Assembly (NCBI GenBank): GCA_002163135.1
Contig: MAAN01000005.1
Location: 1 to 59,041, forward strand
Reading direction: 5' to 3'
Length of the DNA: 59,041 bases
Source: Alphaproteobacteria bacterium 46_93_T64
GTDB lineage: Bacteria > Pseudomonadota > Alphaproteobacteria > Sneathiellales > Sneathiellaceae
The first letter of the stretch is position 1. Each line of letters opens with the position of its first letter. The notes under the pieces were generated by a model that saw only the letters and a program-made list of their open reading frames with translations, did no database searches and had not been told where the DNA came from. A program made the translations under genes and the position numbers. This document shows, in pieces, positions 36,564-50,851 of the stretch.

Positions 36564-36628
36564 GTAGACGGGCCAGCAAAAACGCATGACACTTCTTTCA
36601 CATGTCTCAATACCAGTGAAAATTCGAC

Positions 36629-36665: not shown

Positions 36666-37097
36666 TCCAATATCGCCGAAGCGATAGAGATTAACGTTTT
36701 GCTAACTATACACTTTAAAACATGATATTTTTCATGAAGTTACCTTATATGAAAAATTAATGTATTACTTTTGCAAACAATTTTAAGTAAAATTGACCTG
36801 CGAATATCGGTGTTTCTACATAATCAATGGCAATGATCTGTTCCGTCGTTTTTTTGACCATTCTGTATTCAACATCAACTCAGCGCATTTTTGTCATTCA
36901 TCATGCTTTCATGTTCAAATAATTTACGCCCAAACTGAATAGCCCTTAGATTCGTAGACACTTTGCTGTCTAAAATGAAGCAAGGCGTTTAAGGTCAGTT
37001 AAGGTAATCATTACGCACATAAATTTGAATACAGCGTTATCGCTCAAGTTACAAAATGTGGATATGCAGTTTCTATTGTGTTTAGGTGAAGTGCTTG
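36666..37097. other. Left flank of the island, gene-free
   Basis: About 430 AT-rich bases carry no gene, RNA or repeat that I can support. The left island boundary should fall here or in the terminator just before it. Confidence 0.4.
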
Positions 37098-38354
37098 TTA
37101 GAGCTTTGAAAGTATGAATTTTAGTGCTTTTTCATTGTAACGTGAAATAGCACTACTAGGTAACTTTCCAGAATTTGCATAGTTTTCTGCATGCAATTTA
37201 TTTGTGAATAGAAAGTCTGAGTACTCTTTATTCAATTTCACAGCTTCTTCCTTAATGATCCTGTTAAACTCATACTGTTTAATTAATGGTTTATTCTTTT
37301 TGACCTCTGTTTCCAATTCTTTGTAAGAATAAGGATAGATTTTGAAAACCTCCTCCTTAATAAATTGTAGTGGCGCAGTATTGCTTTGGACTTCGCCAAC
37401 TAATCGTAAAGCTGGCTTCCCTGCTTTTTCAACGAATTCCCCTTCCTTTATGAATTTTAAATCAGGCAGCAATTTTTCATCAACGTAAAAACTACCTGCC
37501 TTTCCCTCAACTTCACCAGTAGAGATGTCCATAATTGCCGCATTCTCAATGCCAATTTGTAAAATTCTAGATAAATGCTTGTTCAAAACTGTTTCAGATA
37601 AGTTACGTACACGGTCTTCAATAATTTTGGATAAGTCACTGGCTGTGATAAGCCTGTCTTCTCCAATATATCTGTAATAAATTTTTCCTTCAGCCGTATC
37701 GTCTCCATCTTTTGCAAAAATTACAGGTTTTGTATGTGCTGGTGCTACATGGAAAACAGCAACTTTTTTACCAACAAAATCCAACACTTTTCGCTTAACT
37801 TCAATTTCTATTCCTAAGTTTGATCTGATAGTCTGATTTAGCTGATTGAAGTCAAAACTCTTAATCTTGGCTTCTTTTATGCCTACAATTTCCCAAGTCT
37901 TATCCACCACTCCTAAAACCAAATAACCACCTTTGTTGTTAGCAAAGGCTGCAATAGTTTTGATTGGCAGGCTGAAACCTTTCTTGCATTCAATTTGGTC
38001 AGTCTCAATTATGTCCAAATGAGTTGTAGAGTCTTTCGCCAATGGCAATAGTTTTGCTAATGTAGTTTCACTGATATGCGCAGCATCATCTGTTATTATT
38101 ATTTTATGAGAATTATAAGTACTTAGGAAAGCATCTGTAGCTGCATTGTCTGCAGAGCCTATGCCCAAATATTTCTTAATTTGACCATTTTTGATGTTTG
38201 ATATTCTGCCAGCATTGATATCTTTTGAAGCGTCGCCTCTATAGCGATTTATCATTCCAGAAATTTCCTGATTTTGATATTTTTCTGGCCTTTCTAAAAG
38301 GTTTTTTATGATACTTACTTCATACTCAGTTAGTGAGTTTCGTTTTTGTTTCAT
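37098..38354 (-). CDS. AlbA_2 (Schlafen-like) ATP-binding-domain protein
   Basis: The 418-residue protein has an N-terminal helical domain (about 1-75) with a DNA-binding look (EYEVSIIKNLLERPEKYQNQEISGMINRYRG). Next comes the AlbA_2/Schlafen-type domain: LDIIETDQIECKKGF, IKTIAAFANNKGGYLVLGVVDKTWEIVGI, LNQTIRSNLGIEIEV, GKKVAVFHVAPAHTKPVIF and YYRYIGEDRLITASDL. A C-terminal region of unknown fold follows. Such proteins occur in mobile elements and defence loci; Schlafen-type domains can cut RNA. It is divergent from the small integrase gene. Confidence 0.75.
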   Translation of the reverse strand: MKQKRNSLTEYEVSIIKNLLERPEKYQNQEISGMINRYRGDASKDINAGRISNIKNGQIKKYLGIGSADNAATDAFLSTYNSHKIIITDDAAHISETTLAKLLPLAKDSTTHLDIIETDQIECKKGFSLPIKTIAAFANNKGGYLVLGVVDKTWEIVGIKEAKIKSFDFNQLNQTIRSNLGIEIEVKRKVLDFVGKKVAVFHVAPAHTKPVIFAKDGDDTAEGKIYYRYIGEDRLITASDLSKIIEDRVRNLSETVLNKHLSRILQIGIENAAIMDISTGEVEGKAGSFYVDEKLLPDLKFIKEGEFVEKAGKPALRLVGEVQSNTAPLQFIKEEVFKIYPYSYKELETEVKKNKPLIKQYEFNRIIKEEAVKLNKEYSDFLFTNKLHAENYANSGKLPSSAISRYNEKALKFILSKL

Positions 38355-38409
38355 GTTGTGCTCAATAAATTTCAATACTAATTTAGAGAGTGTAATTTAG
38401 TTGGGCTTC

Positions 38410-38443
38410 AGAACCTAACAAAACTGTATTTTTCTTAGGTTCT
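38410..38443. promoter_or_regulatory. 9-bp inverted repeat between AlbA_2 and integrase genes
   Basis: AGAACCTAA (38410-38418) and TTAGGTTCT (38435-38443) are perfectly complementary, 16 bases apart. They lie in the divergent intergenic region. This could be an operator or a recombinase accessory site. Confidence 0.5.
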
Positions 38444-38546
38444 ACTATAAGCCATTGAAACGATAGGCTCTATTTCATCAGTTGCGACTGGCCTCATCAG
38501 ACAACATAATATTAGCTGTATTAATCAACTATTTTGTGAGATTTTG

Positions 38547-39116
38547 ATGAAGCAGGCACGTGTTCTTAACTCAATGGAAATGAAGCGTTTATTGGCTGTA
38601 ATTGAGGCTGGCAATCATCCAGTTCGTAATCGTGTTGCGATTATGCTGTCGTATTTGGCGGGGCTACGTGTTGGAGAAATCGCCCAATTAAAAGTCAGCG
38701 ATATATATGAAAATTGCACTTCAGTTCGTGAACAAATATTACTGCCAGCTGGATATACTAAAGGCAATGATGCCCGTTTGGTATTTGTCAGCAAGAAATT
38801 GAAGAAGGAATTGACTACTTATCAATCAAGCAGTGTATTTCCCAATAAACCAACCGCCCCACTCCTAACTACTCAAAAGAGAACTTCTTTTTCCCCCAAC
38901 ACCCTCTGTCAGTTATTTGGAGAGCGATACAAAAGGGCTGGCATTGATGGTGCGTCCAGTCATAGTGGAAGACGTTCATTTATCACCAAGATGGCCCATA
39001 ATGGCATTTCACCAAAAGTCATTATGACATTAGCGGGTCATAAACATCTAGGCACGACACAGCGTTATATTGACGTAAATGATGAAATGCTCAAGGCAGC
39101 GGTTGAAGTGATTTAA
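38547..39116 (+). CDS. Catalytic-core-only tyrosine recombinase
   Basis: At 189 residues the protein contains just the catalytic domain, similar in size to FimB/FimE inverters, without arm-binding or full core-binding domains. Catalytic residues visible: Arg41 (LAGLRVGEIAQL), His139-x-x-Arg142 (SHSGRRSF), the second His box LAGHKHLGTTQ and Tyr174 (RYIDVND). It is complete and probably active. Its 3' end, from the Tyr codon on, occurs again as loose copies at 40021 and 43222, and a mid-gene piece at 45223, so relatives of this gene have been cut and displaced in the same island. Confidence 0.9.
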   Translation: MKQARVLNSMEMKRLLAVIEAGNHPVRNRVAIMLSYLAGLRVGEIAQLKVSDIYENCTSVREQILLPAGYTKGNDARLVFVSKKLKKELTTYQSSSVFPNKPTAPLLTTQKRTSFSPNTLCQLFGERYKRAGIDGASSHSGRRSFITKMAHNGISPKVIMTLAGHKHLGTTQRYIDVNDEMLKAAVEVI

Positions 39117-39143
39117 TTGGCCATGCTGCGCGAGGCATCTTGT

Positions 39144-39770
39144 TTAATCGTCGCGTGATCTACTTAAGATTTCAAATATATTTTTGGTTCCAATAGAAGC
39201 TTGTTCTTCTTTTCCCTGATGTTTCGTTTTCATTAAATCTGCCAACTTGTCTTCCAAAGTTGTGAGCTTCAAGTCCTTGATCTTCATCTTTTTAGAGTTA
39301 CCACCTTGCTTATTAAGTGATCGCCCATAACGCAATCTTGGCGCATCTTCTGCTGTTAAATCTGGCATTTCGTTAGATGTAAAATTGAAATTTCTATCCA
39401 GCCACATGGCCAAACTAGAGTCAGTAGACAGAGCTTCTCTCAAATTCTCATAGGCACGTTCATATTTGGCCTGCACCTCACGATACAAAACGACAGATCT
39501 AGCTGAGTTGCCCTTGGCATACATTTTTTCTGCGCGTCCAGTTAAAGCGTCAGCACTCTTCAGCAACGCCAAATAGTCCAGCAAGCCGTCAGGGGCTTTA
39601 CGCATACCTTCTTCAAATTCTTTATGTGACTGCCAATTATCTTCATAGGCCTCAAATTCTTCTTTAGTAAGCACAGCACGCAGATCACGTTTTGAAACTG
39701 CGCAATCCGATTTCTGCCGCTCTATTAAAACGCGCAAACGTTTCTTTGTTTGGTCAGAATTCAACACCAA
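39144..39770 (-). CDS. Helical protein paired with the small integrase
   Basis: The 208-residue, charged, largely alpha-helical protein has a predicted coiled coil around YREVQAKYERAYENLREAL and a Lys-rich C-terminus. The family is unknown to me. It is convergent with the integrase gene (27 bases between stops). A decayed copy of its first 40 codons lies at 42866-42986, again beside an integrase tail, so the pair seems to have moved as a unit. The TTG/GTG start is preceded by AGGAG. Confidence 0.65.
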   Translation of the reverse strand: MVLNSDQTKKRLRVLIERQKSDCAVSKRDLRAVLTKEEFEAYEDNWQSHKEFEEGMRKAPDGLLDYLALLKSADALTGRAEKMYAKGNSARSVVLYREVQAKYERAYENLREALSTDSSLAMWLDRNFNFTSNEMPDLTAEDAPRLRYGRSLNKQGGNSKKMKIKDLKLTTLEDKLADLMKTKHQGKEEQASIGTKNIFEILSRSRDD

Positions 39771-39800
39771 ATCAGCCGCTCCTATTTGTCAGTAATGTGT

Positions 39801-39828
39801 TTGGATGTTTAAAAATAACACGTCCAAA
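39801..39828 (+). repeat. R motif, copy 1 (dif/att-like)
   Basis: The 28-bp site has near-complementary arms TTGGATGTTT and ACACGTCCAA around an A-rich spacer. This resembles a simple tyrosine-recombinase core site. It lies upstream of the 208-residue-protein gene. Confidence 0.6.
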
Positions 39829-39912
39829 CGATGCCATGCCTGCCCTTCAGCAACACTGTATTTTCTATCTAGGCGCTAAACACTACTTCTAAGTTCACTG
39901 CACATTGCCATC

Positions 39913-39940
39913 AAGATGTTTAAAAACAAAACGTCCAATT
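39913..39940 (+). repeat. R motif, copy 2
   Basis: AAGATGTTTAAAAAC...ACGTCCAATT, in the same orientation as copy 1, 112 bases to its right and 57 bases before a GGCC hairpin. The flanks (GGCTCTGCTG...GCAATCGCTT) recur at 43156. Confidence 0.65.
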
Positions 39941-39996
39941 GGCTCTGCTGACACTGCAATCGCTTCTGTTTTGCTATCCACCCAAAACAAGCTAAA

Positions 39997-40018
39997 GGCC
40001 TGTGGAGGTTAGAAGGCC
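39997..40018 (+). repeat. GGCC hairpin at integrase-tail junction, copy A
   Basis: GGCCT (39997-40001) pairs with AGGCC (40014-40018). It ends three bases before the displaced integrase 3' end. The same arrangement occurs at 43199-43220. Confidence 0.6.
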
Positions 40019-40020
40019 CA

Positions 40021-40070
40021 ATATTGACGTTAATGATGAAATGCTCAAGGCTGCGGTTGAAGTAGTCTGA
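40021..40070 (+). pseudogene. Displaced 3' end of small integrase gene, copy A
   Basis: The sequence reads (N/Y)IDVNDEMLKAAVEVV-stop, matching the last 17 codons of the intact integrase gene (39066-39116) at 44 of 51 bases by my count, taking the preceding base with it. Differences are mostly silent, so this piece evolved as coding DNA before being cut off. No integrase sequence precedes it. Confidence 0.85.
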
Positions 40071-40111
40071 GCCCTTTACAGTAGCTTGACGATGTGGATT
40101 CTTGGAAATAT

Positions 40112-40312
40112 CTAGTCTGCTTTGATCATTATATGAGTTTTGTCTGGATCAGAAAATTCTTCAAATGTTGGCATCTTTTCCCATTGAAACTTACCTCCAC
40201 AAGAGCACGTCATAATCATCATTCCATCAGTGGGCTTTTCTGTTTTAGCTAGGTTCTTCATTTCTTCTTGGTTGTGATGGTAGTCGCAGTGTGGACAAAC
40301 ATATTTTTTCAA
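40112..40312 (-). CDS. Small zinc-ribbon protein
   Basis: The 66-residue protein has CPHC at residues 6-9 and CSCGG at about 36-40, forming a zinc-binding pair, with helical stretches between and after. The start is TTG, directly after the stop of a second tiny Cys-rich frame upstream, which suggests coupling. The role is unknown; such ribbons bind nucleic acid or proteins. Confidence 0.6.
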   Translation of the reverse strand: MKKYVCPHCDYHHNQEEMKNLAKTEKPTDGMMIMTCSCGGKFQWEKMPTFEEFSDPDKTHIMIKAD

Positions 40313-40316
40313 TTTT

Positions 40317-40445
40317 TCATCTTCCTATTATTTTGAACTCTGTTCCACAAAAGCAAATGAATACATTTTTTGCCGTATCATCTTTTCTTGCATTCAATTC
40401 TGCCATAGCAGGCTTGTCATGATTTGCATTACAGCGACGACACAA
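40317..40445 (-). CDS. Possible tiny Cys-rich (zinc-ribbon) protein
   Basis: A 42-codon frame with a possible TTG start encodes CRRC at residues 2-5 and CFCG at 31-34, a complete four-Cys zinc site. It ends five bases before the TTG of the next zinc-ribbon gene. No ATG or good ribosome site is present, so it may be the remnant of a longer gene. Confidence 0.35.
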   Translation of the reverse strand: MCRRCNANHDKPAMAELNARKDDTAKNVFICFCGTEFKIIGR

Positions 40446-40682
40446 TATGTGTTTTATTCGTATTTTATTAAAGTTGATTGCTAAAGTAGAATATAATCAT
40501 ATCAATGGATGTAGCGCTAGGGTGTTTGTTTTGAGGTGTATCAGCACCTTACAGATTATATCTGCGCACCTGTAAAAATAGTACAAAATATAATATTAAT
40601 GCATTCTGTGATAGAAAGCCATAAATAGGCCATATTCCGCGATGATTGTGCTGCTAACGTCCTGCCTAAAAAGGAATGCTAT

Positions 40683-41498
40683 ATGAGAACGGAAAGATTT
40701 GAAGTGTTTCTGGCGGAAACCTTTGGAGGAAGGCCTTGTCAGATGGACACATCCATATATGCGGGCACTCCTTTTGATTGCGCATGTGGGCAAAAACATC
40801 TGTTTGATCATCACACTCAAGTATTGAGAGAGTTAGTTGGCCAGAGGTTGGTTTTTGGCTGCCCTGATAGTTCAGCAGTCACCTGTGTCAAGATGAAGGG
40901 TTTCTTTAAATTCAAAGGATTTGAAAGTGTTTTAGGTTGTATTGATATTCCTGATGAAGCTGAAAATAGTGATGATAGTGATAGTTCTGAAGATGATGTA
41001 GTGCTGGTTAAACTTGTTCAGGATGGACTTAATTTTTACAAGTTGATCTCTATTGGCAACAAGATGGCCTCTGCAAAGAACCTTGCCTCAGACAAAGGTT
41101 TTACTGAAATTATGTTCAATCAAGTAATGGCGCTTTTTGTATTTGGCAGCTTAGATTTTGTGGCCCATTCTGATCAATCTATATCAGGAGGAACTGTTGT
41201 AAACGCGATGACCAGGCTTCTTCAATCAGAAGATTGCTTCAATCTTGATCTAGAAGAGGCTGCTTCTTGGCTTGATATGGTTTGTGACGCTTCTGACGAT
41301 GAAGTCGTTGGTAATGTCATGCAGATTGGTGGGGAAACTATGGGCCTCATTTTAAAGAATACAATAGCTGGAAACGTAGACGCTAATTTTTCTGCGTCTG
41401 GTACGTTATCACATCTGTTTACTGATAAGGGAAAAAATGCATTCACTGATCCACAAGACTTGCGGGACAATCTGATTAGATTTCTAAATGCTTATTAG
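40683..41498 (+). CDS. Island cargo protein, unrecognised
   Basis: The 271-residue acidic protein is cytoplasmic by composition. The N-terminal part has C-x-C and H-x-x-x-HH residues (DCACGQKHLFDHHTQ), which may bind metal. A low-complexity acidic linker SDDSDSSEDD lies at about residue 100, followed by a helical C-terminal half. No family was recognised. It is flanked by the zinc-ribbon gene on the other strand and by the small membrane protein to the right. Confidence 0.6.
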   Translation: MRTERFEVFLAETFGGRPCQMDTSIYAGTPFDCACGQKHLFDHHTQVLRELVGQRLVFGCPDSSAVTCVKMKGFFKFKGFESVLGCIDIPDEAENSDDSDSSEDDVVLVKLVQDGLNFYKLISIGNKMASAKNLASDKGFTEIMFNQVMALFVFGSLDFVAHSDQSISGGTVVNAMTRLLQSEDCFNLDLEEAASWLDMVCDASDDEVVGNVMQIGGETMGLILKNTIAGNVDANFSASGTLSHLFTDKGKNAFTDPQDLRDNLIRFLNAY

Positions 41499-41812
41499 AT
41501 TGGAAATGAATACGACTGTAATATTTCAGAGGATAAACAAATGCAAGCTGAGGCTCTCCCATTAAATTGATCCGTTTTTTTAATCTCTAGAGTGAATGCA
41601 AATCCAGGGGATATTCATCTTAAATAAATTTGGCATTCATTTTAGCAAATAAGATAATGGGTGATCTTGCCCAATATCAAAATAGATGAATGTTATGCTT
41701 AGCGCTATCAATAGCGCTAGTCCAAGGTAGATGTATATCTTGCTCATTTGCCCATCCTTTTATAGTAGTATAGAGTTCGCTTACATTCTACACTAAAGAG
41801 GGGGCTGGCAAC
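41499..41812. other. Gene-free interval in island
   Basis: About 310 AT-rich bases with no ORF above ten codons that has a start signal. The promoter for the three following plus-strand genes probably lies in its last third. Confidence 0.4.
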
Positions 41813-41953
41813 ATGGAGAATGAAGCAGGATTGTCATTTGGCCAAATTTTGACTTTTATTTTATTTATGGCGCTTGGCTACATTGGTATAGGCTATTCAT
41901 CAATTCTACCAAATGGCATATGGTACATTCTCTTTGGTTGGCGGATGATATAG
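41813..41953 (+). CDS. 46-residue membrane protein
   Basis: MENEAGLSFGQILTFILFM begins a short protein with one long or two short hydrophobic helices and ends in FGWRMI. An AGAGGGGG ribosome site precedes the ATG, which supports translation. The family is unknown. It sits 54 bases before the secreted-protein gene and may share its transcript. Tiny membrane proteins in mobile islands are often toxins or entry-exclusion factors, but nothing here proves it. Confidence 0.5.
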   Translation: MENEAGLSFGQILTFILFMALGYIGIGYSSILPNGIWYILFGWRMI

Positions 41954-42007
41954 GTAACCTATAAGCAAATTTTTTGTCTGAATTACATGTTTTAAAAGAA
42001 CAACTTA

Positions 42008-42436
42008 ATGACTCAATCAACCAACCGTTTAGTATTCATGATAGTCGCTCTGACGGTATTAGCCTGTTTGATAATGGTAAATCCTGTTCAGGCATCAACT
42101 ATATGTTCGCAAATGAAAAATGCAGAGACTCAATTAAACAGTAGAGAAATGCGCGAAAAGTCCTCAAATGAGAATTTTATCCTAGTTAGTGTAAAAACTG
42201 ATTGTGATCGTAAGACAATTACCTATGAGGGTGACTTGATTTATAGTTACCAACAGCGAGGATATGAAAGTATTTCTGAGTATCACCAAATGCTATTGAA
42301 AGTAATGAGGAGTAACTTGTGTGCTGTACCTAACCAGATTGATCCTTTGAGGAAAGTTGGTTGGAATTTAATACATAGGTATTTTAGAGTTAATAGTCGC
42401 GTATTAGAGATATCAAGTAATGAAATTGTATGTTGA
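42008..42436 (+). CDS. Secreted or periplasmic cargo protein, unrecognised
   Basis: The 142-residue protein has a clear signal peptide (RLVFMIVALTVLACLIMVNPVQA, cleavage after QAS/ICS region). The mature protein of about 110 residues has four Cys, including the last residue, which may form disulfides. The family is unknown. It lies between two small plus-strand genes. Confidence 0.55.
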   Translation: MTQSTNRLVFMIVALTVLACLIMVNPVQASTICSQMKNAETQLNSREMREKSSNENFILVSVKTDCDRKTITYEGDLIYSYQQRGYESISEYHQMLLKVMRSNLCAVPNQIDPLRKVGWNLIHRYFRVNSRVLEISSNEIVC

Positions 42437-42481
42437 TATCTAACAATCAAAGCAGAAAACTGATGAAGGCGGTGAATAGCA

Positions 42482-42826
42482 GTGTTTGGATTATTTAAAC
42501 CTAGTCGTGAAAAGGTAGCCAATAAATATAAGGAAATGTTTGAGCCAGTACCTATTTTTGCTGCCGTTTATGGATTTTTTTTGAAAGAATCACAAAATGA
42601 AAAAGCAAAAGAATTCAAACGGAATTATGACACGTGGCGACATCTAGCGTTGTCACTAATTGACGAAGGAGATTGGCGCAATGAGGCCGCCTCATATATG
42701 GACGACATATTTAATAAAATGATGAACTATCCTGATTTGATTGCAAAGATAGATGACGTACAGGCTGAAAAGTCGTTCAAAATAATAATTAAGAACATTG
42801 AAGTTCTACATGAGATACTGAACTAG
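42482..42826 (+). CDS. Island cargo protein, unrecognised
   Basis: The 114-residue helical protein uses a GTG start. It begins FGLFKPSREKVANKYKEMFEPV and has the Trp-containing segment DTWRHLALSLIDEGDWRNEAA. No Cys or signal peptide is present. The family is unknown. It ends just before the decayed repeat block B. Confidence 0.5.
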   Translation: MFGLFKPSREKVANKYKEMFEPVPIFAAVYGFFLKESQNEKAKEFKRNYDTWRHLALSLIDEGDWRNEAASYMDDIFNKMMNYPDLIAKIDDVQAEKSFKIIIKNIEVLHEILN

Positions 42827-42865
42827 CCTACTCTATTTAATATTGCTTTGAACGCAGGCTTTTTC

Positions 42866-42986
42866 GTCTCAAACTCTTCTTTAATCAGCACAGCAGCTGA
42901 TCGCGTTTTGAAACTGTGCGATCCGTTTTCAAGCGATCTATCAACACGCTTAAACGTTTCTTTGTTTGGTCAGCATTTGACACCAA
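42866..42986 (-). pseudogene. Broken copy of the 208-residue integrase-partner gene
   Basis: The minus strand reads VSNADQTKKRLSVLIDRLK and matches the first 40 codons of 39144-39770. A one-base deletion after KRD shifts the frame, and homology stops near 42866. The upstream non-coding DNA is also copied up to the integrase tail at 43222. This identifies a whole duplicated block. Confidence 0.85.
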
Positions 42987-43015
42987 ATCAGCCGCTCATG
43001 TTTGTCAGTGATCTA

Positions 43016-43044
43016 TTTGGATGTTCAAAATAAAGACGTCAAAT
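43016..43044 (+). repeat. R motif, copy 1' (degenerate)
   Basis: TTTGGATGTTCAAAAT...GACGTCAAAT occupies the same place in block B as copy 1 in block A. The arms are more diverged. Confidence 0.5.
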
Positions 43045-43127
43045 TGATGCTAAGCTTGCCCTTCTTCAATTCAACAAGTTCTAGCAAAGATGAACTTCTA
43101 TTTAAATGCGCACTAATTATTACCATC

Positions 43128-43155
43128 AAGATGCTTTAAAACAAAACGTCCAAGT
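43128..43155 (+). repeat. R motif, copy 2'
   Basis: AAGATGCTTTAAAAC...ACGTCCAAGT, same orientation, followed after about 43 bases by the GGCC hairpin of block B. Confidence 0.65.
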
Positions 43156-43198
43156 GGCTGTGTTGCCGCTGCAATCGCTTTTGGGTTGTCAATCCAAA

Positions 43199-43220
43199 GG
43201 CCTCCGTGGACTAGGAGGCC
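43199..43220 (+). repeat. GGCC hairpin at integrase-tail junction, copy B
   Basis: Perfect 7-bp stem GGCCTCC/GGAGGCC with an 8-base loop. It ends one base before the Tyr codon of the displaced integrase tail. Confidence 0.7.
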
Positions 43221-43221
43221 C

Positions 43222-43272
43222 TATATTGACGTGAATGATGAAATCCTCAATATAGTTGCAGAAATAATTTAG
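43222..43272 (+). pseudogene. Displaced 3' end of small integrase gene, copy B
   Basis: It reads YIDVNDEILNIVAEII-stop, matching the intact integrase from the catalytic Tyr codon to the stop, more diverged than copy A. The break point is the same as in copy A to within one base. Confidence 0.8.
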
Positions 43273-43381
43273 TTATACGCTTTTGGATTCAATCCGCAGC
43301 AAGGCAGGTATCACGATTAAGTGCAATGATTTACTCTTTTTGGATAACACTTTTACTTGAGCCCCTACTTGGACAAAACAT

Positions 43382-43990
43382 ATGCCTGAACAACTCTTAA
43401 CTGTTGATGATATTGCAAAATCATTCGACATTTCAGCCGATGTCGTACTATTTCACGTAAATTCTGATAGATTACTGGCAAGAAAAATGGGACCATTTAT
43501 TCGATTCCATCAGGTAGATGTCAATGAGTGGGCTGATAAAAATGCATCGTTATTGATAGATCCCCCCACGTGGAACGAAAAACTATTGGGCGAAATCAGC
43601 CACCTAGATGGCTTGCTTCTCAAAACTCATTATGAGCATCAGAATGGTCCAGATTGGGTAAATGCAGTTCTGCAAGGTGATTTTAAGCAAATACCAGATC
43701 CCTTGATGTGGGATGAAGGAGCATTCTTATCAATGATCATAGATGGTTATTCTTTAGCACCTCTTTTAGGATTAAAGGACTGCGGCGATTTTGCAAACAA
43801 ATGCGCTGAAGAAGCTTCTGTAACTGGAATATGGAGCGGAAGTGCAACTGAACTATGGATATGCCTTTTTTTTGAAGCAAGACGTTGGCGGCACTATGCA
43901 GAAGAACCTCTAGGTGAAGAGAAGATATCTTTGGATAGTTTGTGTGGGACGTTAAGAAAGACTCTGATCGCTGAAAGCTCAAGAAAATAA
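43382..43990 (+). CDS. Excisionase-like HTH protein with unknown C-terminal domain
   Basis: The 202-residue protein starts with an excisionase/MerR-like helix-turn-helix (LLTVDDIAKSFDISADVVLFHVNSDRLLARKMGPFIRF, then VDVNEWADKN). About 140 residues of unknown fold with several Trp and Cys follow. The first domain suggests DNA binding, perhaps as a directionality factor or regulator. It is followed by the 370-residue gene after about 100 bases on the same strand; the two may be one module. Confidence 0.6.
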   Translation: MPEQLLTVDDIAKSFDISADVVLFHVNSDRLLARKMGPFIRFHQVDVNEWADKNASLLIDPPTWNEKLLGEISHLDGLLLKTHYEHQNGPDWVNAVLQGDFKQIPDPLMWDEGAFLSMIIDGYSLAPLLGLKDCGDFANKCAEEASVTGIWSGSATELWICLFFEARRWRHYAEEPLGEEKISLDSLCGTLRKTLIAESSRK

Positions 43991-44089
43991 TTTATATTAG
44001 ATGTCATCTTGATTAACTTGAGTACTAAGCATCAATAGAAGTAAGAGATATCGATGGGAATTGTGCCATCTTAACTACAGAGAAAAAGC

Positions 44090-45202
44090 ATGATTTTACA
44101 GAATAGACTCAACGAGTATGAATACGAAATGGGCTTTATTTTAGCTAATTTAGCCTATCATATTCATCCCAAAATAATTAGTCGCATTCAATATATCAAT
44201 AGGAACGAACAAAGCTATTTTGACGAACTTTTTGCTGGTAAGATTGATACAGAAAACTATCTGTATGATGGTTCTGCCTGTGTATTCCCTGGGGTTAGGC
44301 GTTACGTAAGTGGTAAAGGTAAAAAAAGAAGTTATAATTTTGAATATCAGGCCATAATTGATGACAATACGTTTCCACGCCATATTTGGTGTTTTCTTAA
44401 AAGTGGAAAAACGTACAGTGGCCCAAATTGGGAAAAGTCAGAACTGTCTGAATTTGAACTCGCCCATATTTTCACACATAAAGAATCTGAACTAGAATTT
44501 GAAAAACAATTTTTCTCTGAGATAGATGACGACTTATTGCCTTTTGGTGATTTTTCTTGTGCCAGTAATGTGATTTTGCTGCCTAAAGGAACTGCGCGAC
44601 CCACAGATAATTCAAGAATTATAAAGGCTGTATTCTACAAACGATACATTGACCTTTATGGCGAGGATTCACTTAATGGAAGAAGTGGTTTTAGAATAGG
44701 AGAAGTTCCAAAATGGTATTCTGAACTAAAATGGAACGAACCATATTTACCTGAAAATTGGGAGAAAAATATTGAGGCGCTAATGAATTACCGTACGAAA
44801 AGAATAACGAAAATCGTTCAGAAGGCTTTTCCTGTTTCTTCCACGAATAGTCCTGCGGTAAGCGTAACCAAAAGCAATCTGGTGCACAAACAATCAAAAA
44901 AGGGAATTAATGGTGATTTTCCAAAACTTAGTAAAATTGAACTTTGGGCAAAGCATCCAAATCAATTTAATCATAAAATTGTAAGAGCTTTTCTTAATCT
45001 TAGTGAAGCAGGAAACGTTAGCATTGATAGCTTGCGAAGCCATTGTGTGAAGCAAGGTATTCTTGCGAAAAATTTCAATAGTCACTTTGCATCAATGAAA
45101 ACCAACGCTGGTAATAGTCACGGTAAAATTTTTGAAGAATTTGATAATGGTTCCGTTGCAATACCTACAACTGTTCTAATGGAAATCAAACGCCATTTCT
45201 GA
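44090..45202 (+). CDS. Possible HNH-like nuclease, island cargo
   Basis: The 370-residue protein has a middle segment (about 120-185) with FELAHIFTHK and, after a spacer, SCASNVILLPKGTARPTD. This is reminiscent of the His-Asn core of HNH nucleases (H-I-x-x-H-K ... S-N-x-x-L-L) without the CxxC zinc pairs. The C-terminal part (about 280-370) looks like a small helical DNA-binding region (RSHCVKQGILAKNFNSHF). The assignment is tentative. The gene ends 20 bases before a mid-integrase remnant. It would fit a restriction-type defence cargo together with the HTH gene upstream. Confidence 0.4.
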   Translation: MILQNRLNEYEYEMGFILANLAYHIHPKIISRIQYINRNEQSYFDELFAGKIDTENYLYDGSACVFPGVRRYVSGKGKKRSYNFEYQAIIDDNTFPRHIWCFLKSGKTYSGPNWEKSELSEFELAHIFTHKESELEFEKQFFSEIDDDLLPFGDFSCASNVILLPKGTARPTDNSRIIKAVFYKRYIDLYGEDSLNGRSGFRIGEVPKWYSELKWNEPYLPENWEKNIEALMNYRTKRITKIVQKAFPVSSTNSPAVSVTKSNLVHKQSKKGINGDFPKLSKIELWAKHPNQFNHKIVRAFLNLSEAGNVSIDSLRSHCVKQGILAKNFNSHFASMKTNAGNSHGKIFEEFDNGSVAIPTTVLMEIKRHF

Positions 45203-45222
45203 AAAACAATATGCAGAAATAG

Positions 45223-45306
45223 AAGAGAACCGCTTTCTCCCCAAATACCTTATGCCTGCTATTTGGTCAGCGACATAACAGGGTTGGTATTGATGGCGCG
45301 TTCTAA
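45223..45306 (+). pseudogene. Internal fragment of a small integrase gene
   Basis: About 84 bases align with 38878-38960 of the intact integrase (region encoding FSPNTLCQLFGERYKRAGIDGA), with scattered changes and a stop. Neither the upstream nor the downstream part of the gene is present here. This is a third remnant of the same recombinase family. Confidence 0.75.
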
Positions 45307-45388
45307 ATAATCCATTCAAATTTAATCCTTCAAATTATTTCTGGATTTTGAATTTCCAATGAGCTTAGTAATAATAAAAAGTGAAACC

Positions 45389-45934
45389 TTACGGATGAAT
45401 ATGCCTCTCTTTAACGGTGAAATTATTAATACCAGCTAACTGATATCGTAAAAATGGGTCGTGCCCAAGCTGCCAATTTTCTGGCATTGATTTATTTAAT
45501 TTTGCGGCATTAATTTTATCGTCTTCTTCTTTCAAGACTATGCATCTAATACCGTATTCTATAAGTAACTTATGAATTTCTTCTCTGCTAGGTCGCGATG
45601 AAAAAATAGTCTGGGATAGAAAGGCACAAGGGACCAAATGCTCATGCATAAGATCTTTCTTTAGTTCTTTTGGAATTCTAACAATGCCGTTCCTTCGCTT
45701 TTCACCAAATTGAGCTATATACAAACGAGCTTCCTCAGATATCGCATCTGCTGATCTTCTATAGTCACCTATTTCAGACGAAACTCTAACTAATCTATTG
45801 GTTAGTTCTCGTTTTTCTTTATCGCTTGATTCACTATTTAAGCAAGCAACTATCATACTCGCACAAGTTCTGATTCTTTGTGACAAGTCTTGGTTCTCAG
45901 ACCTTAATTGAATTAGTTCGTTCCATATTTTCAT
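45389..45934 (-). CDS. Cargo protein with EHLVP...EED...MPxxW...RYxxAGI pattern
   Basis: The 181-residue protein has an N-terminal coiled-coil helix (about 1-75). A compact C-terminal domain follows with MHEHLVPC, IVLKEEDDKIN, SMPENW and FLRYQLAGI. I recall this order of motifs in unnamed phage- and island-encoded proteins; the His-Glu-His and Glu-Glu-Asp clusters could form a nuclease metal site, but no function is established to my knowledge. It is flanked by R motif copy 3. Confidence 0.5.
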   Translation of the reverse strand: MKIWNELIQLRSENQDLSQRIRTCASMIVACLNSESSDKEKRELTNRLVRVSSEIGDYRRSADAISEEARLYIAQFGEKRRNGIVRIPKELKKDLMHEHLVPCAFLSQTIFSSRPSREEIHKLLIEYGIRCIVLKEEDDKINAAKLNKSMPENWQLGHDPFLRYQLAGINNFTVKERHIHP

Positions 45935-46024
45935 CACATAAAATCCATCCGTAGGAGTAAGTTATCCGTACATTTCACGATGTTGATATTAAGACCCCGT
46001 AAAATGCGCGCCACCTAGTACCTC

Positions 46025-46052
46025 AACATGTTTAAAAATAAAACGTCCAACT
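46025..46052 (+). repeat. R motif, copy 3
   Basis: CAACATGTTTAAAAAT...ACGTCCAACT, same orientation as the others. The following bases (GACTATGTCG...GCTG) still resemble the flanks of copies 2 and 2', and a strong hairpin lies 69 bases on. Confidence 0.65.
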
Positions 46053-46120
46053 GACTATGTCGTAGCTGTGTTTGCAAAACCAAAAATCATTTTGAGCACT
46101 ATTCTTACAGACAACAAGTT

Positions 46121-46151
46121 CTGTTGAAATGGGTTGGTACCCATTCAACAG
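46121..46151. repeat. Strong hairpin beside R motif copy 3
   Basis: CTGTTGAAATGGGT pairs with ACCCATTCAACAG (13 pairs, one bulged A) around a TGGT loop. There is no T-run. It lies downstream of the GIY-YIG gene on the minus strand. Confidence 0.65.
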
Positions 46152-46200
46152 CTATTATTAAAATTTCATGGCATGTATTTGAAAAGTTTTTGGAAATTAT

Positions 46201-47025
46201 TCATTCAACTAAAATGGAGTTAGGGGAGAGCACCGTAACTTCTATTTTATCATCAAGGTTTTTGCTATTTTTAAACCAATAGGCCAATTGGCTACCCCCC
46301 ATTATTCTTGGGGAATTAGTATTATTTGCTGATCTATTTATATGCCCATCAATCAGGGCTAAATGTTTTCCACAAAATATTTCTATACGATCATGGTCTT
46401 CACCAAACGCCTCCATATAGGCTACTGGGACATTGAAGAAACCTTGATTGTAGTATGTTTTACGTAACTGAAATTGGAACTTTTGATCGACGTCATTTGA
46501 TATTGGTTCCGCAATATTCTCGTTAGCGGTTTGGCCAATAAAATTAGATGTTTTCCCTTTGGGATCACCAGTTAGACCAGTAATTTTACTCTGCATACCA
46601 TTCCAAGAGGGGCTTAGATTTGAGATTAAGCTATCCTCCAAGCCTGCCGCCACATTAACGTGAAATCCACCATAATTAAGCAATCCACTGTCAGGTAGTG
46701 CAAAAATATCAACGCCGTGACCTGCTTTCAATGAGGCAAGAATATTGTTTCTATTCTTTATGTTTGTTGATTGTGCTTTCCCTGGCTTGAGGTATCCATA
46801 CATTCGTTTTTTCAAAGGCTGCGTAGTTTTTCCTACGTACATTACCTTTCCCTCGCACACGAATGCGTACAGCACATTATTAGTGTTTTCTTGGCTATTT
46901 AGTTCTAAATCAACCTGTTCTTCTTTTAATTTCCAGCAACCTACTTTTTGAAAGCCAATATCAACTATTCGTTTCATTTGCTGCTTACCCCCATAAATTT
47001 TAAGTTTCTCTGAGATAGATTCCAT
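46201..47025 (-). CDS. GIY-YIG nuclease with C-terminal DNA-binding-type domain
   Basis: The 274-residue protein has a GIY-YIG core at about 48-145: LYAFVCEGKVMYVGKT (variant of GIY...YIG), KKRMYGYLKP, and a catalytic Glu in AAGLEDSLISNLSPSWNG. The C-terminal 95 residues (TYYNQGFFNVP, GKHLALIDGHINRSANN, SPRIMGGSQLAYWF) form a separate domain. A nuclease plus specificity-domain layout is known from type II restriction enzymes such as Eco29kI. No methyltransferase gene is adjacent. Probable DNA endonuclease, in defence or mobility. Confidence 0.8.
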   Translation of the reverse strand: MESISEKLKIYGGKQQMKRIVDIGFQKVGCWKLKEEQVDLELNSQENTNNVLYAFVCEGKVMYVGKTTQPLKKRMYGYLKPGKAQSTNIKNRNNILASLKAGHGVDIFALPDSGLLNYGGFHVNVAAGLEDSLISNLSPSWNGMQSKITGLTGDPKGKTSNFIGQTANENIAEPISNDVDQKFQFQLRKTYYNQGFFNVPVAYMEAFGEDHDRIEIFCGKHLALIDGHINRSANNTNSPRIMGGSQLAYWFKNSKNLDDKIEVTVLSPNSILVE

Positions 47026-47137
47026 CGCTATCCGCTGTAGTTCTTACATCTCCATTTATCAACATCTTTATATTGCTTTTGAGAATGGTAGCATTTTGAG
47101 TATTGCAGATGAATTGTTTAAAATTGAACTCATGTTG

Positions 47138-47272
47138 TTAGCAGTCAATTTTCTTAGTTGCTGAACATCTGTTTGTTTTCAACAACGCAGAGATGCATTC
47201 GTTTATTTCTGCTGTAAGCTCTTCCAAGCAGTAACCTTGGTGGCCTTTTCTACATATCTCTTTGTAACGCAT
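47138..47272 (-). CDS. 44-residue Cys-rich protein
   Basis: The ATG is preceded by AGGAG at eight bases. The product begins MRYKEICRKGHQGYCLEEL and contains five Cys and one His, including CRKGHQGYC, compatible with a small zinc site. No homologue is known to me. It lies upstream of the GIY-YIG gene on the same strand. Confidence 0.4.
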   Translation of the reverse strand: MRYKEICRKGHQGYCLEELTAEINECISALLKTNRCSATKKIDC

Positions 47273-47649
47273 AATGCTGCTCCTGAGATTTCTTGTTCTG
47301 TTTATTTATCAGCTGTTGTCTGGGCAGTTACTTACTCCAATAGCATTAGTTCTTAGTATGAATATTTAGTGATTTGTTGTTCTGGATATCATCTGATGTT
47401 TTCTAATAATATCTTCTATAACTGTCATCTGCTGTTGTTTCATTTAGACAATACTATTACTTACCCACCTGCTCAGTGCAAAAATTCCAATCCAAAAACT
47501 CTATTTTCTTCTTGTTATAATTGCGCCACGCAAGTGGAGTGTAATGTTGTGTAAAATAATTTCCCATATTGCGTAGCGTTGCCAACATCTAGGTCAAATA
47601 TTTATTGTAGAGCTACTGATTAAGAAATCAGTAGCTGCAGGTTCCAGTT
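47273..47649. other. Gene-free AT-rich interval in island
   Basis: No frame with both start and ribosome site was found. A 61-codon plus-strand frame (47369-47554) is Cys/Phe-rich, lacks a ribosome site and looks like chance. Confidence 0.4.
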
Positions 47650-48114
47650 TTAACTCTGGCTAAATTGAATGTTTTCTGCAGGATCATTAATGTAGATGGC
47701 TTTACCGCAATAACGGCTAAACGTTTTATTTGCATCCTCATCTGCTTGAGCATGCTTAATCTTGTTTGACCCACTAGGGATTAGTTTTTTCCAGACATCG
47801 CCCGCCTCTGTCTCAAAAATTTCATGTTTGTCAGAGCGCAGCTTAACCATTAGGTGCCAATGAATATTACTGTCCACATGCTCTACAAATCCATAGAATT
47901 GAGTGCGTTTATGTGGTTTGTTATGCCATCTACCGCCCAACATGAGACGATCATTTCTAGCATGCCATTCATGCAAATCTCTCGCAGCGTCTTGTACTGA
48001 CCAATAACGGCCAAAGGGTTGGGGGTTAAATGCTAGGCTAACAAAATAGTCCCAGTCTTTTTTGGCAGTCCATTGACGCCATGCTTCTTTAATATCTTTA
48101 TTGTTTATTGTCAT
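47650..48114 (-). CDS. HUH-type Rep-like endonuclease
   Basis: The 154-residue protein shows the three HUH-family motifs in order: motif 1 YFVSLAF (about 23-29), motif 2 HWH at residues 85-87 in NIHWHLMVKL, and motif 3 RYCGKAIY with candidate nucleophile Tyr135. This is a single-Tyr relaxase/Rep-like layout, as in rolling-circle replication initiators and related transposases. There is no helicase domain. A perfect 11-bp hairpin lies 88 bases upstream and may be its nick site. It sits between two integrase genes or fragments. Confidence 0.65.
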   Translation of the reverse strand: MTINNKDIKEAWRQWTAKKDWDYFVSLAFNPQPFGRYWSVQDAARDLHEWHARNDRLMLGGRWHNKPHKRTQFYGFVEHVDSNIHWHLMVKLRSDKHEIFETEAGDVWKKLIPSGSNKIKHAQADEDANKTFSRYCGKAIYINDPAENIQFSQS

Positions 48115-48201
48115 TTTTAGGTAAAATCACTCGTTACTAATCAGATCATCATCGACCCTTCCTATGTTTATTTATCAAAGTTGAAATGCATATGGTTTGA
48201 G

Positions 48202-48227
48202 TGAGGTGTCGCTTAGGCGACACCTCA
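48202..48227. repeat. Perfect 11-bp hairpin upstream of the HUH gene
   Basis: TGAGGTGTCGC and GCGACACCTCA flank a TTAG loop. There is no T-run on either strand. The position between the integrase remnant and the HUH gene, with a very stable short-loop stem, fits a rolling-circle nicking site or a simple stop signal. Confidence 0.7.
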
Positions 48228-48244
48228 TATTTACAAATGAAGAT

Positions 48245-48439
48245 CTATTTGGTTCTGGTTAGGGTATCAACCAGTTGTCTAGTCGTAGAGTGGCTGTAAT
48301 GATCATCAAGCATTTTGTAGCTCGTGCCCATATTCTTGCTCACAGCGTTGAGCTCTACCCCAATATTTAGACGAAGGGTCGCATATGTATGGCGCAGGCT
48401 ATAGGGCGTTCTTGTTTTACCAAAACTTTTTCTTAAGAA
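48245..48439 (-). pseudogene. C-terminal fragment of a tyrosine integrase
   Basis: About 64 residues (LRKSFGKTRTPYSLRHTYATLRL ... MLDDHYSHST) contain the second Arg box and the catalytic Tyr but no N-terminal two-thirds. It belongs to the same broad family as the 472-residue integrase but is clearly different in sequence. The break lies 18 bases from R motif copy 4. Confidence 0.8.
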
Positions 48440-48456
48440 GCTCAAACTGCAATAGT

Positions 48457-48482
48457 GAGTGTTTAAAAAAGAAACGTCCAAA
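48457..48482 (+). repeat. R motif, copy 4
   Basis: GTGAGTGTTTAAAAAAG...AACGTCCAA, same orientation as the other copies. It sits immediately at the truncation point of the integrase fragment. Confidence 0.6.
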
Positions 48483-48771
48483 TTTTTGCATCGTCGCAAG
48501 CTGCTTAAAATGAAATTGATACAGCGTAATTATCAGAGGCATCGTTGGCCTGTGGAATTTGTTTAGTACAGCCCACGCAGACACCAGCTTGCTCATGGAA
48601 ATACTTAAAAACACTGTCAGGCGAGCAAATAACAGGTATCGCGCAAACAACGATAACACCCACTCGTGAAACACTCATTGCCAAATAATTTCAGAAGAAA
48701 TTTTACCTTCAAGCTATATGGCAGAAATATCAAACTTCCAATTTGCCACAGCTCAAAATGAATTGACTAAT

Positions 48772-50190
48772 TTAGTTGGATGCCTTGTTTTTGTCGCTAT
48801 CAACAGTGGAAAAGCCTTTTAACAATTTCATCGCCAAATCCAAATTTCCCTCTTTGGCAAGTTCAAGAATATTTTGCGCGATCTTTTCTTCTGCTTGTTT
48901 GCTTTTCTTCCCTTTCTTTGTGTTAGCAGTTAGTTCATCACTTCGCCGTACATGATCACTATGCAAATAGTGTTTATGCAATTGGACTATGCCTGTTCCC
49001 ATATTGCCAGCAACTATGTCTAGCTTCGCATCATTCAACTCCAAGCGCTTAGTAGCGTAATAATGCCGCAAAGATGTAAGCGACCTTCTATCGCCATCAG
49101 CATCACATAAAATTCCCTTATCCCTGCCCTTATAAGGTACTTCCAACATGAATTTTTTAAACGTTTTATTGGGGTCACTTAATCTGCTGCCCTTGTTTGC
49201 GCAGAAAACAAAATCTTGTGGCTCTGTATGATTACTAATGCTGCGCACCTCTTCCAAATAACGCACTGCATTTGGTTGCGAAATGACTGCTCGTGTTTTG
49301 CCTTTTTTCGTATCGGCTCTCACACGTATTTCCAACTTTGTTTCATCGTCTGTATCAATAAATTTTTTAACGTCTTCCCATCGCATTTGCATTACTTCGC
49401 CAACACGCATGCCTGTATTCGCCATAAACAAAACTAAAAATCGAATGGTCAACCGTTGCTTTAAATGAAGTTCGTGCAGCTTGTTATTCTTCCAGATACC
49501 AGCACCACGGCTCCAATGATAAAGCTGCGTAGTCAGAACGTTATATTCCATATCATCAAACGAAGGCCGCCTAGCAGTCTCTCGTCTGTCTTTTTCAGGA
49601 ACTTTAACAGCGGGCAAAAATGGCAACATGCGTCGCTGATGTGCGTTAGACAATATTTGCCTAATTGCACTTTGTTCCATTTTTAATGTCTTGGAACTTG
49701 GAGTTTCTGCTGCATTACCAAATTTACCACGATCTTTTTCACCAGCACCACCAACTTTCCAATAGCTTTTACGCCAGCCCCAATAGCCATCCACGACATC
49801 TGGTGTTATGTCGTTTAATAGATATTTGCCAAAATATGGAATACAGTAGCGCCTGGCGTAATTCTTGTGCCAATTAATGCGGTCCTGCTGCCAGTCTCCA
49901 CGCTGTAACTGCCGCTCATACCAAAGTGTCCAAAATTGTGAAAATGTAATATCTTTGAGTGGTATGTTTTGTTTATGACGGTCTTGTAACTTGTAAAACC
50001 GCTGACGTGCCTCTGTTATTGCTTCTGCATCATCAACAGTTCCCAAGCTTTCTGTGATGTACTGTTTGCCAACTCTTGCCCTCATATACCAAATGGGCTT
50101 CTTCGTTACGTGTCTAACGAAAATGGCCAGATTTTTATCTAAATATCTGAAATCCAAATAGGATTTTGTTGTATTTCGCATAATTGCCAC
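48772..50190 (-). CDS. int: Phage/island-type tyrosine integrase, full length
   Basis: The 472-residue protein has an N-terminal arm/SAM-like core-binding region (about 1-200) and the catalytic domain with Arg in NTGMRVGEVMQMRWEDV, the second box SLTSLRHYYATKRL, and the Tyr in QLHKHYLHSDH. A Lys-rich tail follows. It starts next to the rpsI terminator and is the likely integrase of the outermost island. A 12-bp direct repeat links the DNA just before its start with the rpsI terminator. Confidence 0.93.
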   Translation of the reverse strand: MAIMRNTTKSYLDFRYLDKNLAIFVRHVTKKPIWYMRARVGKQYITESLGTVDDAEAITEARQRFYKLQDRHKQNIPLKDITFSQFWTLWYERQLQRGDWQQDRINWHKNYARRYCIPYFGKYLLNDITPDVVDGYWGWRKSYWKVGGAGEKDRGKFGNAAETPSSKTLKMEQSAIRQILSNAHQRRMLPFLPAVKVPEKDRRETARRPSFDDMEYNVLTTQLYHWSRGAGIWKNNKLHELHLKQRLTIRFLVLFMANTGMRVGEVMQMRWEDVKKFIDTDDETKLEIRVRADTKKGKTRAVISQPNAVRYLEEVRSISNHTEPQDFVFCANKGSRLSDPNKTFKKFMLEVPYKGRDKGILCDADGDRRSLTSLRHYYATKRLELNDAKLDIVAGNMGTGIVQLHKHYLHSDHVRRSDELTANTKKGKKSKQAEEKIAQNILELAKEGNLDLAMKLLKGFSTVDSDKNKASN

Positions 50191-50196
50191 CTAAAT

Positions 50197-50208
50197 GCTG
50201 CAACCCTT
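50197..50208 (+). repeat. Candidate att-related direct repeat, copy 1
   Basis: GCTGCAACCCTT, just upstream of the integrase start codon. The same 12 bases recur at 50290-50301 inside the rpsI terminator. Confidence 0.5.
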
Positions 50209-50267
50209 ATGCAAAACACACTAACTGTAATCTTTTTTAAATCAAGTACTTGTAAAGCTTCTGCAAA

Positions 50268-50302
50268 GCAAAAAGGGCTGCAGCCAGAAGCTGCAACCCT
50301 TT
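50268..50302 (-). terminator. rpsI rho-independent terminator (candidate island attachment site)
   Basis: On the minus strand, AAAGGG-TGCAGC pairs with GCTGCA-CCCTTT around a short loop and is followed by TTTTTGCT. It is the normal end of rplM-rpsI, and its 3' arm holds the 12-bp repeat shared with 50197-50208. Confidence 0.85.
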
Positions 50303-50332
50303 GATAACAAACAAATTTGTTCGTTTTCTGTT

Positions 50333-50851
50333 TTAGCGTTTTGAGAACTGGAAGCTACGACGAGCTTTCGCACGACCGTATTTCTTACGTTCAACAACCC
50401 GGCTATCACGTGTCAAGAAGCCAGCGGCTTTCAATGGACGACGAAGAGCTGGTTCGTAGTATGTCAAAGCTTTTGAGATACCGTGACGAACCGCGCCAGC
50501 TTGACCAGAAAGACCACCGCCTTTTGCTGTGCAAACAACGTCGAACTGATCGCTACGACCTGCAATTTCAAAAGCTTGTGCAAGGATCATACGAAGCACT
50601 GGACGTGCGAAGTATGTTTCTTGATCACGGCCATTGATTGTGATCTTGCCAGTACCTGGTTTGATCCAAACACGAGCGATCGCGTTTTTACGTTTACCAG
50701 TCGCGTAAGAGCGACCTTGTGCATCAATTTTTGGCTCTGGAAGTGGTGTTTCAATCACTTCAGCAGCTTCGATCACTTCAGAACCTTCAGTCGCGACAAC
50801 GCCGCTAGTCAGGTTTTTCAAGTCTTCAAGAGAGTTCAATTCATCAGACAT
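50333..50851 (-). CDS. rpsI: 30S ribosomal protein S9
   Basis: The 172-residue protein ends in the universal S9 tail ([22 protein letters not shown]) and contains [26 protein letters not shown] and [15 protein letters not shown]. An acidic N-terminal extension of about 45 residues precedes the conserved part, as in other alphaproteobacteria. It is translated directly after rplM (2-base gap). Confidence 0.98.

What the first reader, a model, noticed from the sequence alone, without database searches (positions are those of the whole stretch)
39066..43272. Displaced 3' ends of a small integrase gene, each cut at or within a base of the catalytic Tyr codon and preceded by a GGCC hairpin
The intact core-only recombinase gene ends with a 51-base segment from Tyr174 to stop. 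The same segment, without the rest of the gene, recurs at 40021 and 43222. In both copies the break point is the same to within one base, and a GGCC stem-loop sits directly before it. Differences from the intact gene are largely silent in copy A. By analogy with tRNA-targeting islands that displace the tRNA 3' end, this suggests an element that inserts into the 3' end of its own integrase gene, restores the gene, and pushes the old end outward, building a cargo array. I know no described element that uses its integrase 3' end this way.
Basis: partly seen in the sequence, partly recalled or inferred. Interest (0 to 1): 0.8.

Follow-up and report, generated by a model that had tools for sequence, protein, structure and literature searches.

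The report
Displaced recombinase gene ends in island
A small mobile DNA island carries an intact recombinase gene followed by leftover copies of that gene's tail, most likely scars left as newer cargo pushed older cargo outward, and not proof that the recombinase inserts DNA into its own gene.

Summary
The two tails are real (A 40020-40070, B 43222-43272). They are not independent: both follow the same ~370-bp stretch (A and B 75% identical), and only B's GGCC hairpin beats shuffles. I found 50 related loci, mostly alpha- and betaproteobacterial. In 18 of 24 loci with a full-length integrase, the two genes point tail to tail and bracket a variable slot (2 bp to 9.7 kb). Sister islands lose similarity at the small gene's stop codon. 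Relatives also carry displaced 3' ends, but broken elsewhere (about codons 98-109 and 129-138), and the tail DNA shows no extra synonymous constraint. The recombinase is Xer-like, with a dif-like palindrome upstream. Best reading: sequential displacement of old gene ends by new cargo, as proposed for rhs and T6SS loci, in an island family that I did not find described. Site-specific insertion at the gene's 3' end is not excluded for this lineage.

The parts
36691..50349 (.). whole integrated island, ~13.6 kb, at the 3' end of rpsI; short att-like overlap 36691-36707 / 50333-50349 (14 of 17 bases alike by eye)
   Evidence: empty site in a same-genus genome: window 36627-36707 matches L137 2145-2225 and window 50333 onward matches L137 from 2209; rpsI homology in 18 of the 23 other genomes of the genus starts at window 50333-50335, the other 5 gave no match
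37098..38375 (-). Schlafen AlbA_2-domain gene, left part of the island
   Evidence: Pfam PF04326, E 3.8e-16
38410..38443 (.). dif-like palindrome upstream of int, candidate recombination site
   Evidence: AGAACCTAACAAAA ctgtat TTTTCTTAGGTTCT; similar form and place in many relatives
38547..39116 (+). intact core-only tyrosine recombinase (int)
   Evidence: PF00589 E 7.6e-27; XerA/XerD-like
39144..39770 (-). reverse gene, unknown function, also found close to int in three Polynucleobacter loci
   Evidence: ORF cluster 10; no match in Pfam or NCBIfam, one weak PADLOC match E 0.009
39651..40019 (.). unit A: 5' end and leader of the reverse gene, up to the junction
   Evidence: 75% identical to unit B
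40020..40070 (+). tail A, displaced int 3' end (Tyr codon reads Asn)
42868..43221 (.). unit B, same leader with only a remnant of a reverse gene
43222..43272 (+). tail B, displaced int 3' end, more diverged
45214..45303 (+). middle piece of another int copy (residues ~109-138), no tail behind it
46023..46059 (.). partial third copy of the unit (C), no tail
   Evidence: 86% over 37 nt, E 3.4e-5
47650..48114 (-). weak Rep-like (REP_ORF2-G2P) gene
   Evidence: Pfam E 0.0039, below cut-off
48254..48427 (-). C-terminal remnant of a second full-length integrase
   Evidence: 43% to residues 364-422, E 7e-5
48772..50190 (-). intact full-length integrase beside rpsI, presumed integrase of the island
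   Evidence: PF00589 and Phage_int_SAM_3; island end at rpsI

Best explanation
The tails are scars of sequential displacement. The island has a cargo slot that begins at the stop codon of a small Xer-like recombinase gene and ends at the far integrase. When DNA from a related island recombines, the conserved int gene and its upstream region act as the homologous anchor on one side. The other side joins without homology (illegitimately) inside the resident int gene. The incoming int then leads, and the old int keeps only a 3' piece, which moves outward with the older cargo. Repeats of this build an array: intact int, tail A, tail B, piece C. Shown: the tails, the remnants in relatives, varied break points, the variable slot, the sharp edge at the stop codon. 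Inferred: the anchor-plus-illegitimate-join mechanism. I also infer that the recombinase is a single-recombinase Xer/dif-type resolver of the excised element, not the agent of cargo entry.
For: Displaced 3' ends with an intact int on the same strand upstream: window A and B, L026 (1), L040 (3), L050 (2). In the stretches of these four loci no lone 5' piece of the small gene was found; window piece C has neither end. For the remnants mapped, no N-terminal half was detected within 900 bp upstream; in L067 a 5' piece lies about 2.6 kb away from the 3' piece. Break points differ between loci. 29 of 31 sister pairs that I chose drop to 46% ungapped identity or less in the first 50 bases after int, while the 50 bases from the Tyr codon keep 74-98% (exceptions L053/L054 98% and L046/L047 58%). 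Six Methylobacterium islands also drop sharply at the far integrase's stop codon, 15 of 15 pairs. The slot runs from 2 bp (L051) to 9.7 kb (window) in 18 convergent loci. No synonymous constraint in the tail: 11 tail against 31 body codons, p 0.43. Palindrome upstream of int: at most 5% of 60 shuffles do as well in 16 of 43 loci; 12 of 15 sites tested showed only themselves in their locus. Two of three plasmid relatives looked at lie near a ParA gene. A like pattern and mechanism are proposed for V. cholerae T6SS arrays (PMC5361080, passages read).
Against: Tails A and B break exactly at the catalytic Tyr codon, unlike the other remnants. Tail A is nearly free of damaging changes although its unit differs by 25% from B, which is easier to explain if junctions form repeatedly at one site. 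A leader motif recurs five times on one strand, which illegitimate joining does not predict. Remnant break points fall into two loose clusters; block-wise conservation of the gene may produce that, or hot spots may. Sharp edges at stop codons are also what selection on the genes alone would give. No strain series shows one insertion step. The relatives were found partly through the YIDVNDEM peptide, which favours 3' pieces. For the resolver role: 27 of 43 loci have no upstream palindrome better than shuffles at the 5% level, 3 of 43 have a 10-11 of 11 palindrome downstream, and the three plasmid relatives do not show the same site form.
Confidence: 0.55

Rival explanations
1. One reading: cargo units enter by site-specific recombination at the 3' end of int, restore the gene with their own copy of the tail, and push the old tail outward, like cassettes of an integron.
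For: Same break to one base in A and B. Both tails keep frame and stop. Divergence from int grows outward (7, then 12 of 51). In B the outer GTCAAT/ATTGAC and inner GGCC arms fold as a nested hairpin that takes in the start of the tail.
Against: Break points elsewhere differ. Junctions A and B share flanks. A's hairpin is no better than shuffles and lacks the outer arms. The tail has no DNA-level constraint. 36 of 47 relative genomes searched hold a single match of the tail motif with up to one mismatch.
Confidence: 0.17
2. Ordinary accretion and decay: whole related islands, or [int + reverse gene] blocks, were stacked or duplicated at rpsI, and most of each older copy was deleted; A and B are a duplicated relic.
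For: Remnants of both integrases occur in one island. Units A and B are homologous over ~400 bp. A reverse gene of the same group lies close to int in Polynucleobacter as well.
Against: No lone 5' pieces of the small gene in the window, L026, L040 or L050 stretches. No recognised island-backbone gene lies between tails A and B. Plain duplication does not explain different cargo in each block.
Confidence: 0.25
3. A different element, with its own lost integrase, uses the int 3' end as its attachment site.
For: Integrases often target 3' ends of genes (general knowledge); this island itself sits at the rpsI 3' end.
Against: The segment from the int tail to tail A (955 bp) holds one reverse gene with no recombinase family match; no such integrase was found.
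Confidence: 0.03

Closest known systems
C-terminal / effector displacement arrays (rhs; V. cholerae T6SS effector-immunity arrays, PMC5361080)
   Same: Intact leading gene, displaced 3' end behind it, older cargo pushed outward; the paper proposes homology-facilitated illegitimate recombination (passages read). The rhs work (PMC2935791) was seen as a listing and as cited there.
   Different: The anchor gene here is a recombinase gene in a mobile island, and the cargo is not immunity genes.
Single-recombinase Xer/dif systems (XerH/difH, XerS/difSL; PMC5357621)
   Same: Xer-like catalytic domain and a palindromic site close to the gene; [quoted passage not shown]
   Different: Core-only, about 190 aa, carried by islands; activity untested.
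Integrons
   Same: Array-like cargo next to a tyrosine recombinase gene; nested hairpin in copy B.
   Different: Integron-integrase model TIGR02249 scores 41 bits against a cut-off of 265; cargo lies at the gene's 3' end; an attC search proper was not run.
Archaeal 'suicidal' integrases (SSV, pTN3; PMC8371274)
   Same: A recombination target inside the integrase gene would be a shared idea.
   Different: There the gene is split on integration, and the review reports them from archaea only (passages read); here int is intact in the integrated island.

Membership tests
C-terminal displacement array | intact gene followed by displaced 3' ends on the same strand | tested here: met
   window, L026, L040, L050
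C-terminal displacement array | variable break points | tested here: met
   about codons 98-109, 129-138 and 174
C-terminal displacement array | conserved anchor upstream, variable cargo after it | tested here: met
   homology upstream of int in several sister pairs, drop at the stop codon in 29 of 31 pairs
C-terminal displacement array | single-step insertion seen between strains | not tested
   no close strain with the island was at hand; only the window's own of 25 genomes of the order has int at E 1e-20
3'-end-targeting element using int's own end | same break site in independent insertions | tested here: not met
   A and B share ~370 bp upstream; other loci break elsewhere
3'-end-targeting element using int's own end | target end conserved as DNA across the family | tested here: not met
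   no excess synonymous constraint in 49 genes
3'-end-targeting element using int's own end | excised circle or joint | not testable with these tools
   no reads available
Integron | integron integrase family | tested here: not met
   TIGR02249 41 bits, cut-off 265
Integron | attC sites behind cassettes | not tested
   no attC model was run; only one B hairpin of nested form
Single-recombinase Xer/dif module | palindromic core site near the gene | tested here: met
   window site reached by 0 of 60 shuffles; 11 of 43 loci with 10-11 of 11 paired arm bases upstream against 3 of 43 downstream; not seen in that form in the three plasmid relatives
Single-recombinase Xer/dif module | recombination at that site | not testable with these tools
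   needs an assay

The most novel reading that the evidence does not exclude
In this lineage the 3' end of the recombinase gene, with a nested hairpin carried by the incoming unit, is a true recombination site, so the island is an integron-like cassette machine that evolved independently and hides its attachment site inside its own recombinase gene.
Probability: 0.13. Interest if true: 0.85.

Novelty: new variant of a known kind. Interest (0 to 1): 0.42.

Why it matters
If right, a widespread island family in alpha- and betaproteobacteria changes its cargo in a slot set between two tail-to-tail recombinase genes, and leaves scars that record past cargo. Two slots tested (L026, L036) hold defence-like genes; the window's own slot gave only weak matches. 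It would extend the displacement mechanism proposed for toxin loci to recombinase genes, and it gives a testable role to a family of core-only Xer-like recombinases. That I did not find the family described rests on searches of one open library.

Tried and rejected
Searched for decayed integrase body before tails A and B: none. Tested the tail for DNA-level constraint: none. Tried to use the silent changes in tail A as proof of recent detachment: not decisive, because some of them may lie on the int branch. Searched for more tails in the class (1 of 385 genomes, the window's own) and in IMG/VR (one contig, the same as), and for the gene in the genus (24 genomes) and order (1 of 25): nothing new. 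Looked for Rfam matches in the island: one sub-threshold hit. Tried to read the 21-bp motif as a recombination site or a coding stretch: no case either way. The clusters of break points were considered as hot spots, but block-wise conservation of the gene could create them. FimB/FimE, strand-biased elements, RIT trios and GInts were considered from memory or listings only.
Full report
1. Observation. The window lies in a 4.0-Mb, 41-contig genome. The intact gene is 38544-39116; from ATG 38547 it encodes 189 residues with Tyr174. The 51-base end recurs at 40020-40070 and 43222-43272 with 7 and 12 differences. The match of tail A to the gene has E 1.7e-12. A profile of 41 sequences, the window's own included, finds no integrase body before either tail (best whole-frame E 0.31 for A, 1.2 for B), whereas the same search finds piece C with E 1.4e-6. 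A later search that took in the tails matched A from profile position 172 and B weakly from position 142.

2. The DNA before both tails is one homologous unit of about 370 bp (39651-40048 with 42868-43250, 75%, tails partly included), covering the 5' end of the reverse gene 39144-39770 and its leader. A third partial copy lies at 46023-46059. A 21-bp motif in this unit occurs five times in the window with up to three mismatches, all on the + strand, against 0.01 expected. In the whole genome a shorter form with up to two mismatches has eight places, five of them in this island; the reversed control pattern has twelve places. The hairpin before tail A is not better than shuffles (z -0.3), the one before tail B is (z -4.1).

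3. The island. A same-genus genome has the empty site: window 36627-36707 and window 50333 onward meet there with a 17-bp overlap. The island is therefore about 13.6 kb and sits at the 3' end of rpsI. The full-length integrase 48772-50190 lies at that end and is the natural candidate for integration (inference). A remnant of a second such integrase lies beside it.

4. Relatives. A genome scan gave 50 loci (52 of 88 pattern stretches encode a relative), mostly from alpha- and betaproteobacteria by their record titles; L062 is labelled gammaproteobacterial. Open frames of at least 60 aa in 52 sources (the window, the 50 loci and L075) were clustered: a full-length integrase group occurs in 28 of 52, partial frames and the duplicate L075 included. 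Counting only frames of 300 aa or more and dropping L075, there are 25 in 24 loci. Eighteen loci have it downstream and convergent with the small gene, with gaps of 2 bp (L051) to 9655 bp (window). Six loci have it upstream on the same strand, and one of these, L030, has a second one downstream on the same strand. L025 and L026 have tRNA genes at one end with 45- and 47-bp direct repeats. Slot cargo of L026 and L036 (seven proteins) matches defence-type models, strongly for one protein of each (E 5.8e-20 and 6.9e-23), weakly for the rest. In the window, ten island proteins gave three with matches: 3.8e-6 for the Schlafen-type gene outside the slot, 3.6e-4 and 0.009 inside it.

5. The slot edge. 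In 31 pairs of loci that I chose for similarity, compared without gaps, the 50 bases from the Tyr codon keep 74-98% identity; the next 50 fall to 46% or less in 29 of 31, the exceptions being L053/L054 (98%) and L046/L047 (58%). In six Methylobacterium islands the other edge is as sharp: 66-84% just inside the far integrase gene, at most 38% just outside, in 15 of 15 pairs. Sharp edges at coding ends are also what selection on the genes would give, so they show turnover but not its mechanism. One pair, L038 and L074, keeps homology past the stop codon.

6. Remnants elsewhere. With an intact gene upstream: L026 one, L040 three, L050 two. Lone 3' pieces: L069, L071, L073, L074. L067 is split, with a 5' and a 3' piece about 2.6 kb apart, and holds short repeats. 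First profile position matched: L026 98, L050 100 and (weakly) 109, L069 99, L074 100, L073 104, window C 106; L071 129, L040 132, 133 and 138; tail A 172, tail B weakly 142. Plain tblastn had begun later or earlier in some (L069 106, L071 133, L073 63, L074 119), so these positions carry an error of several codons and, for L073, more. In L069 the upstream DNA reads to me like a transposase (recalled, from the letters, not searched). The Tyr-codon break was thus seen only in this window among the loci examined.

7. Is the tail a DNA site? Over 49 genes, excess synonymous entropy is -0.060 for 31 body codons and -0.039 for 11 tail codons (p 0.43). This does not support a site shared by the family; it does not exclude one in a single lineage. 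In 36 of 47 relative genomes the tail motif occurs once with up to one mismatch; several copies close together occur in those of L040 (4), L050 (3) and L067 (2). A one-mismatch match 21.7 kb from the gene on the contig of L038 was not looked at.

8. What the small recombinase may do. Its nearest families are XerA and XerD. In 43 loci with enough upstream DNA, the best 11-bp palindrome has 10-11 paired positions in 11 loci upstream and in 3 loci downstream; in 16 of 43 at most 5% of 60 shuffles reach the upstream one. By eye 21 of 43 share the form AA...TT with an 8-base centre at about -129 to -178. Of 15 sites searched for in their own locus, 12 found only themselves; L067 has one before its second copy, L058 and L025 show weak matches. 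Of three plasmid relatives looked at, two (35% and 39% identical) lie near a ParA gene, and the closest one (60%) does not; none shows the same site form. This fits a resolver with one site per element, but as inference only.

9. Literature. The T6SS paper PMC5361080 describes successive displacement with shifting back of a 3' end and proposes homology-facilitated illegitimate recombination; it also notes the likeness to integrons, without evidence for an integrase (passages read). Passages were also read of PMC5357621, PMC8138268 and PMC8371274. Other papers were seen as listings with the start of the abstract.

10. Verdict. The array is real and the idea of outward displacement is good. The step to a self-targeting integrase is not carried by relatives. 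The wider family of two-recombinase cargo islands is the more solid and more general result.

Noticed in passing
39807, 39918, 43133, 46030, 48461 (+): A 21-bp motif GTTTAAAAANNAAACGTCCAA recurs five times on one strand (up to 3 mismatches), near the upstream end of reverse-strand genes or gene remnants; it may be an operator or a right-end mark.
   Followed up: partly
48254-48427 (-): C-terminal remnant of a second full-length integrase directly beside the intact one.
   Followed up: partly
L051 2720-4509: In a betaproteobacterial MAG the two recombinase genes abut tail to tail with a 2-bp gap: an apparently empty cargo slot.
   Followed up: no
L067 (several places): Identical ~40-100 bp repeats in both orientations lie in and around recombinase genes, like small transposable elements.
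   Followed up: no
G000:C11:123063-123626 (L002): A second core-only recombinase, 37% identical, elsewhere in the same genome.
   Followed up: no
L053 10588-10720, L055 10578-10854: Imperfect inverted repeats spanning 133 and 277 bp begin right behind int in Polynucleobacter.
   Followed up: no
Caulobacter phages of the phiCbK kind: Distant core-only relatives (about 31-33% identical) sit in large Caulobacter phages.
   Followed up: no
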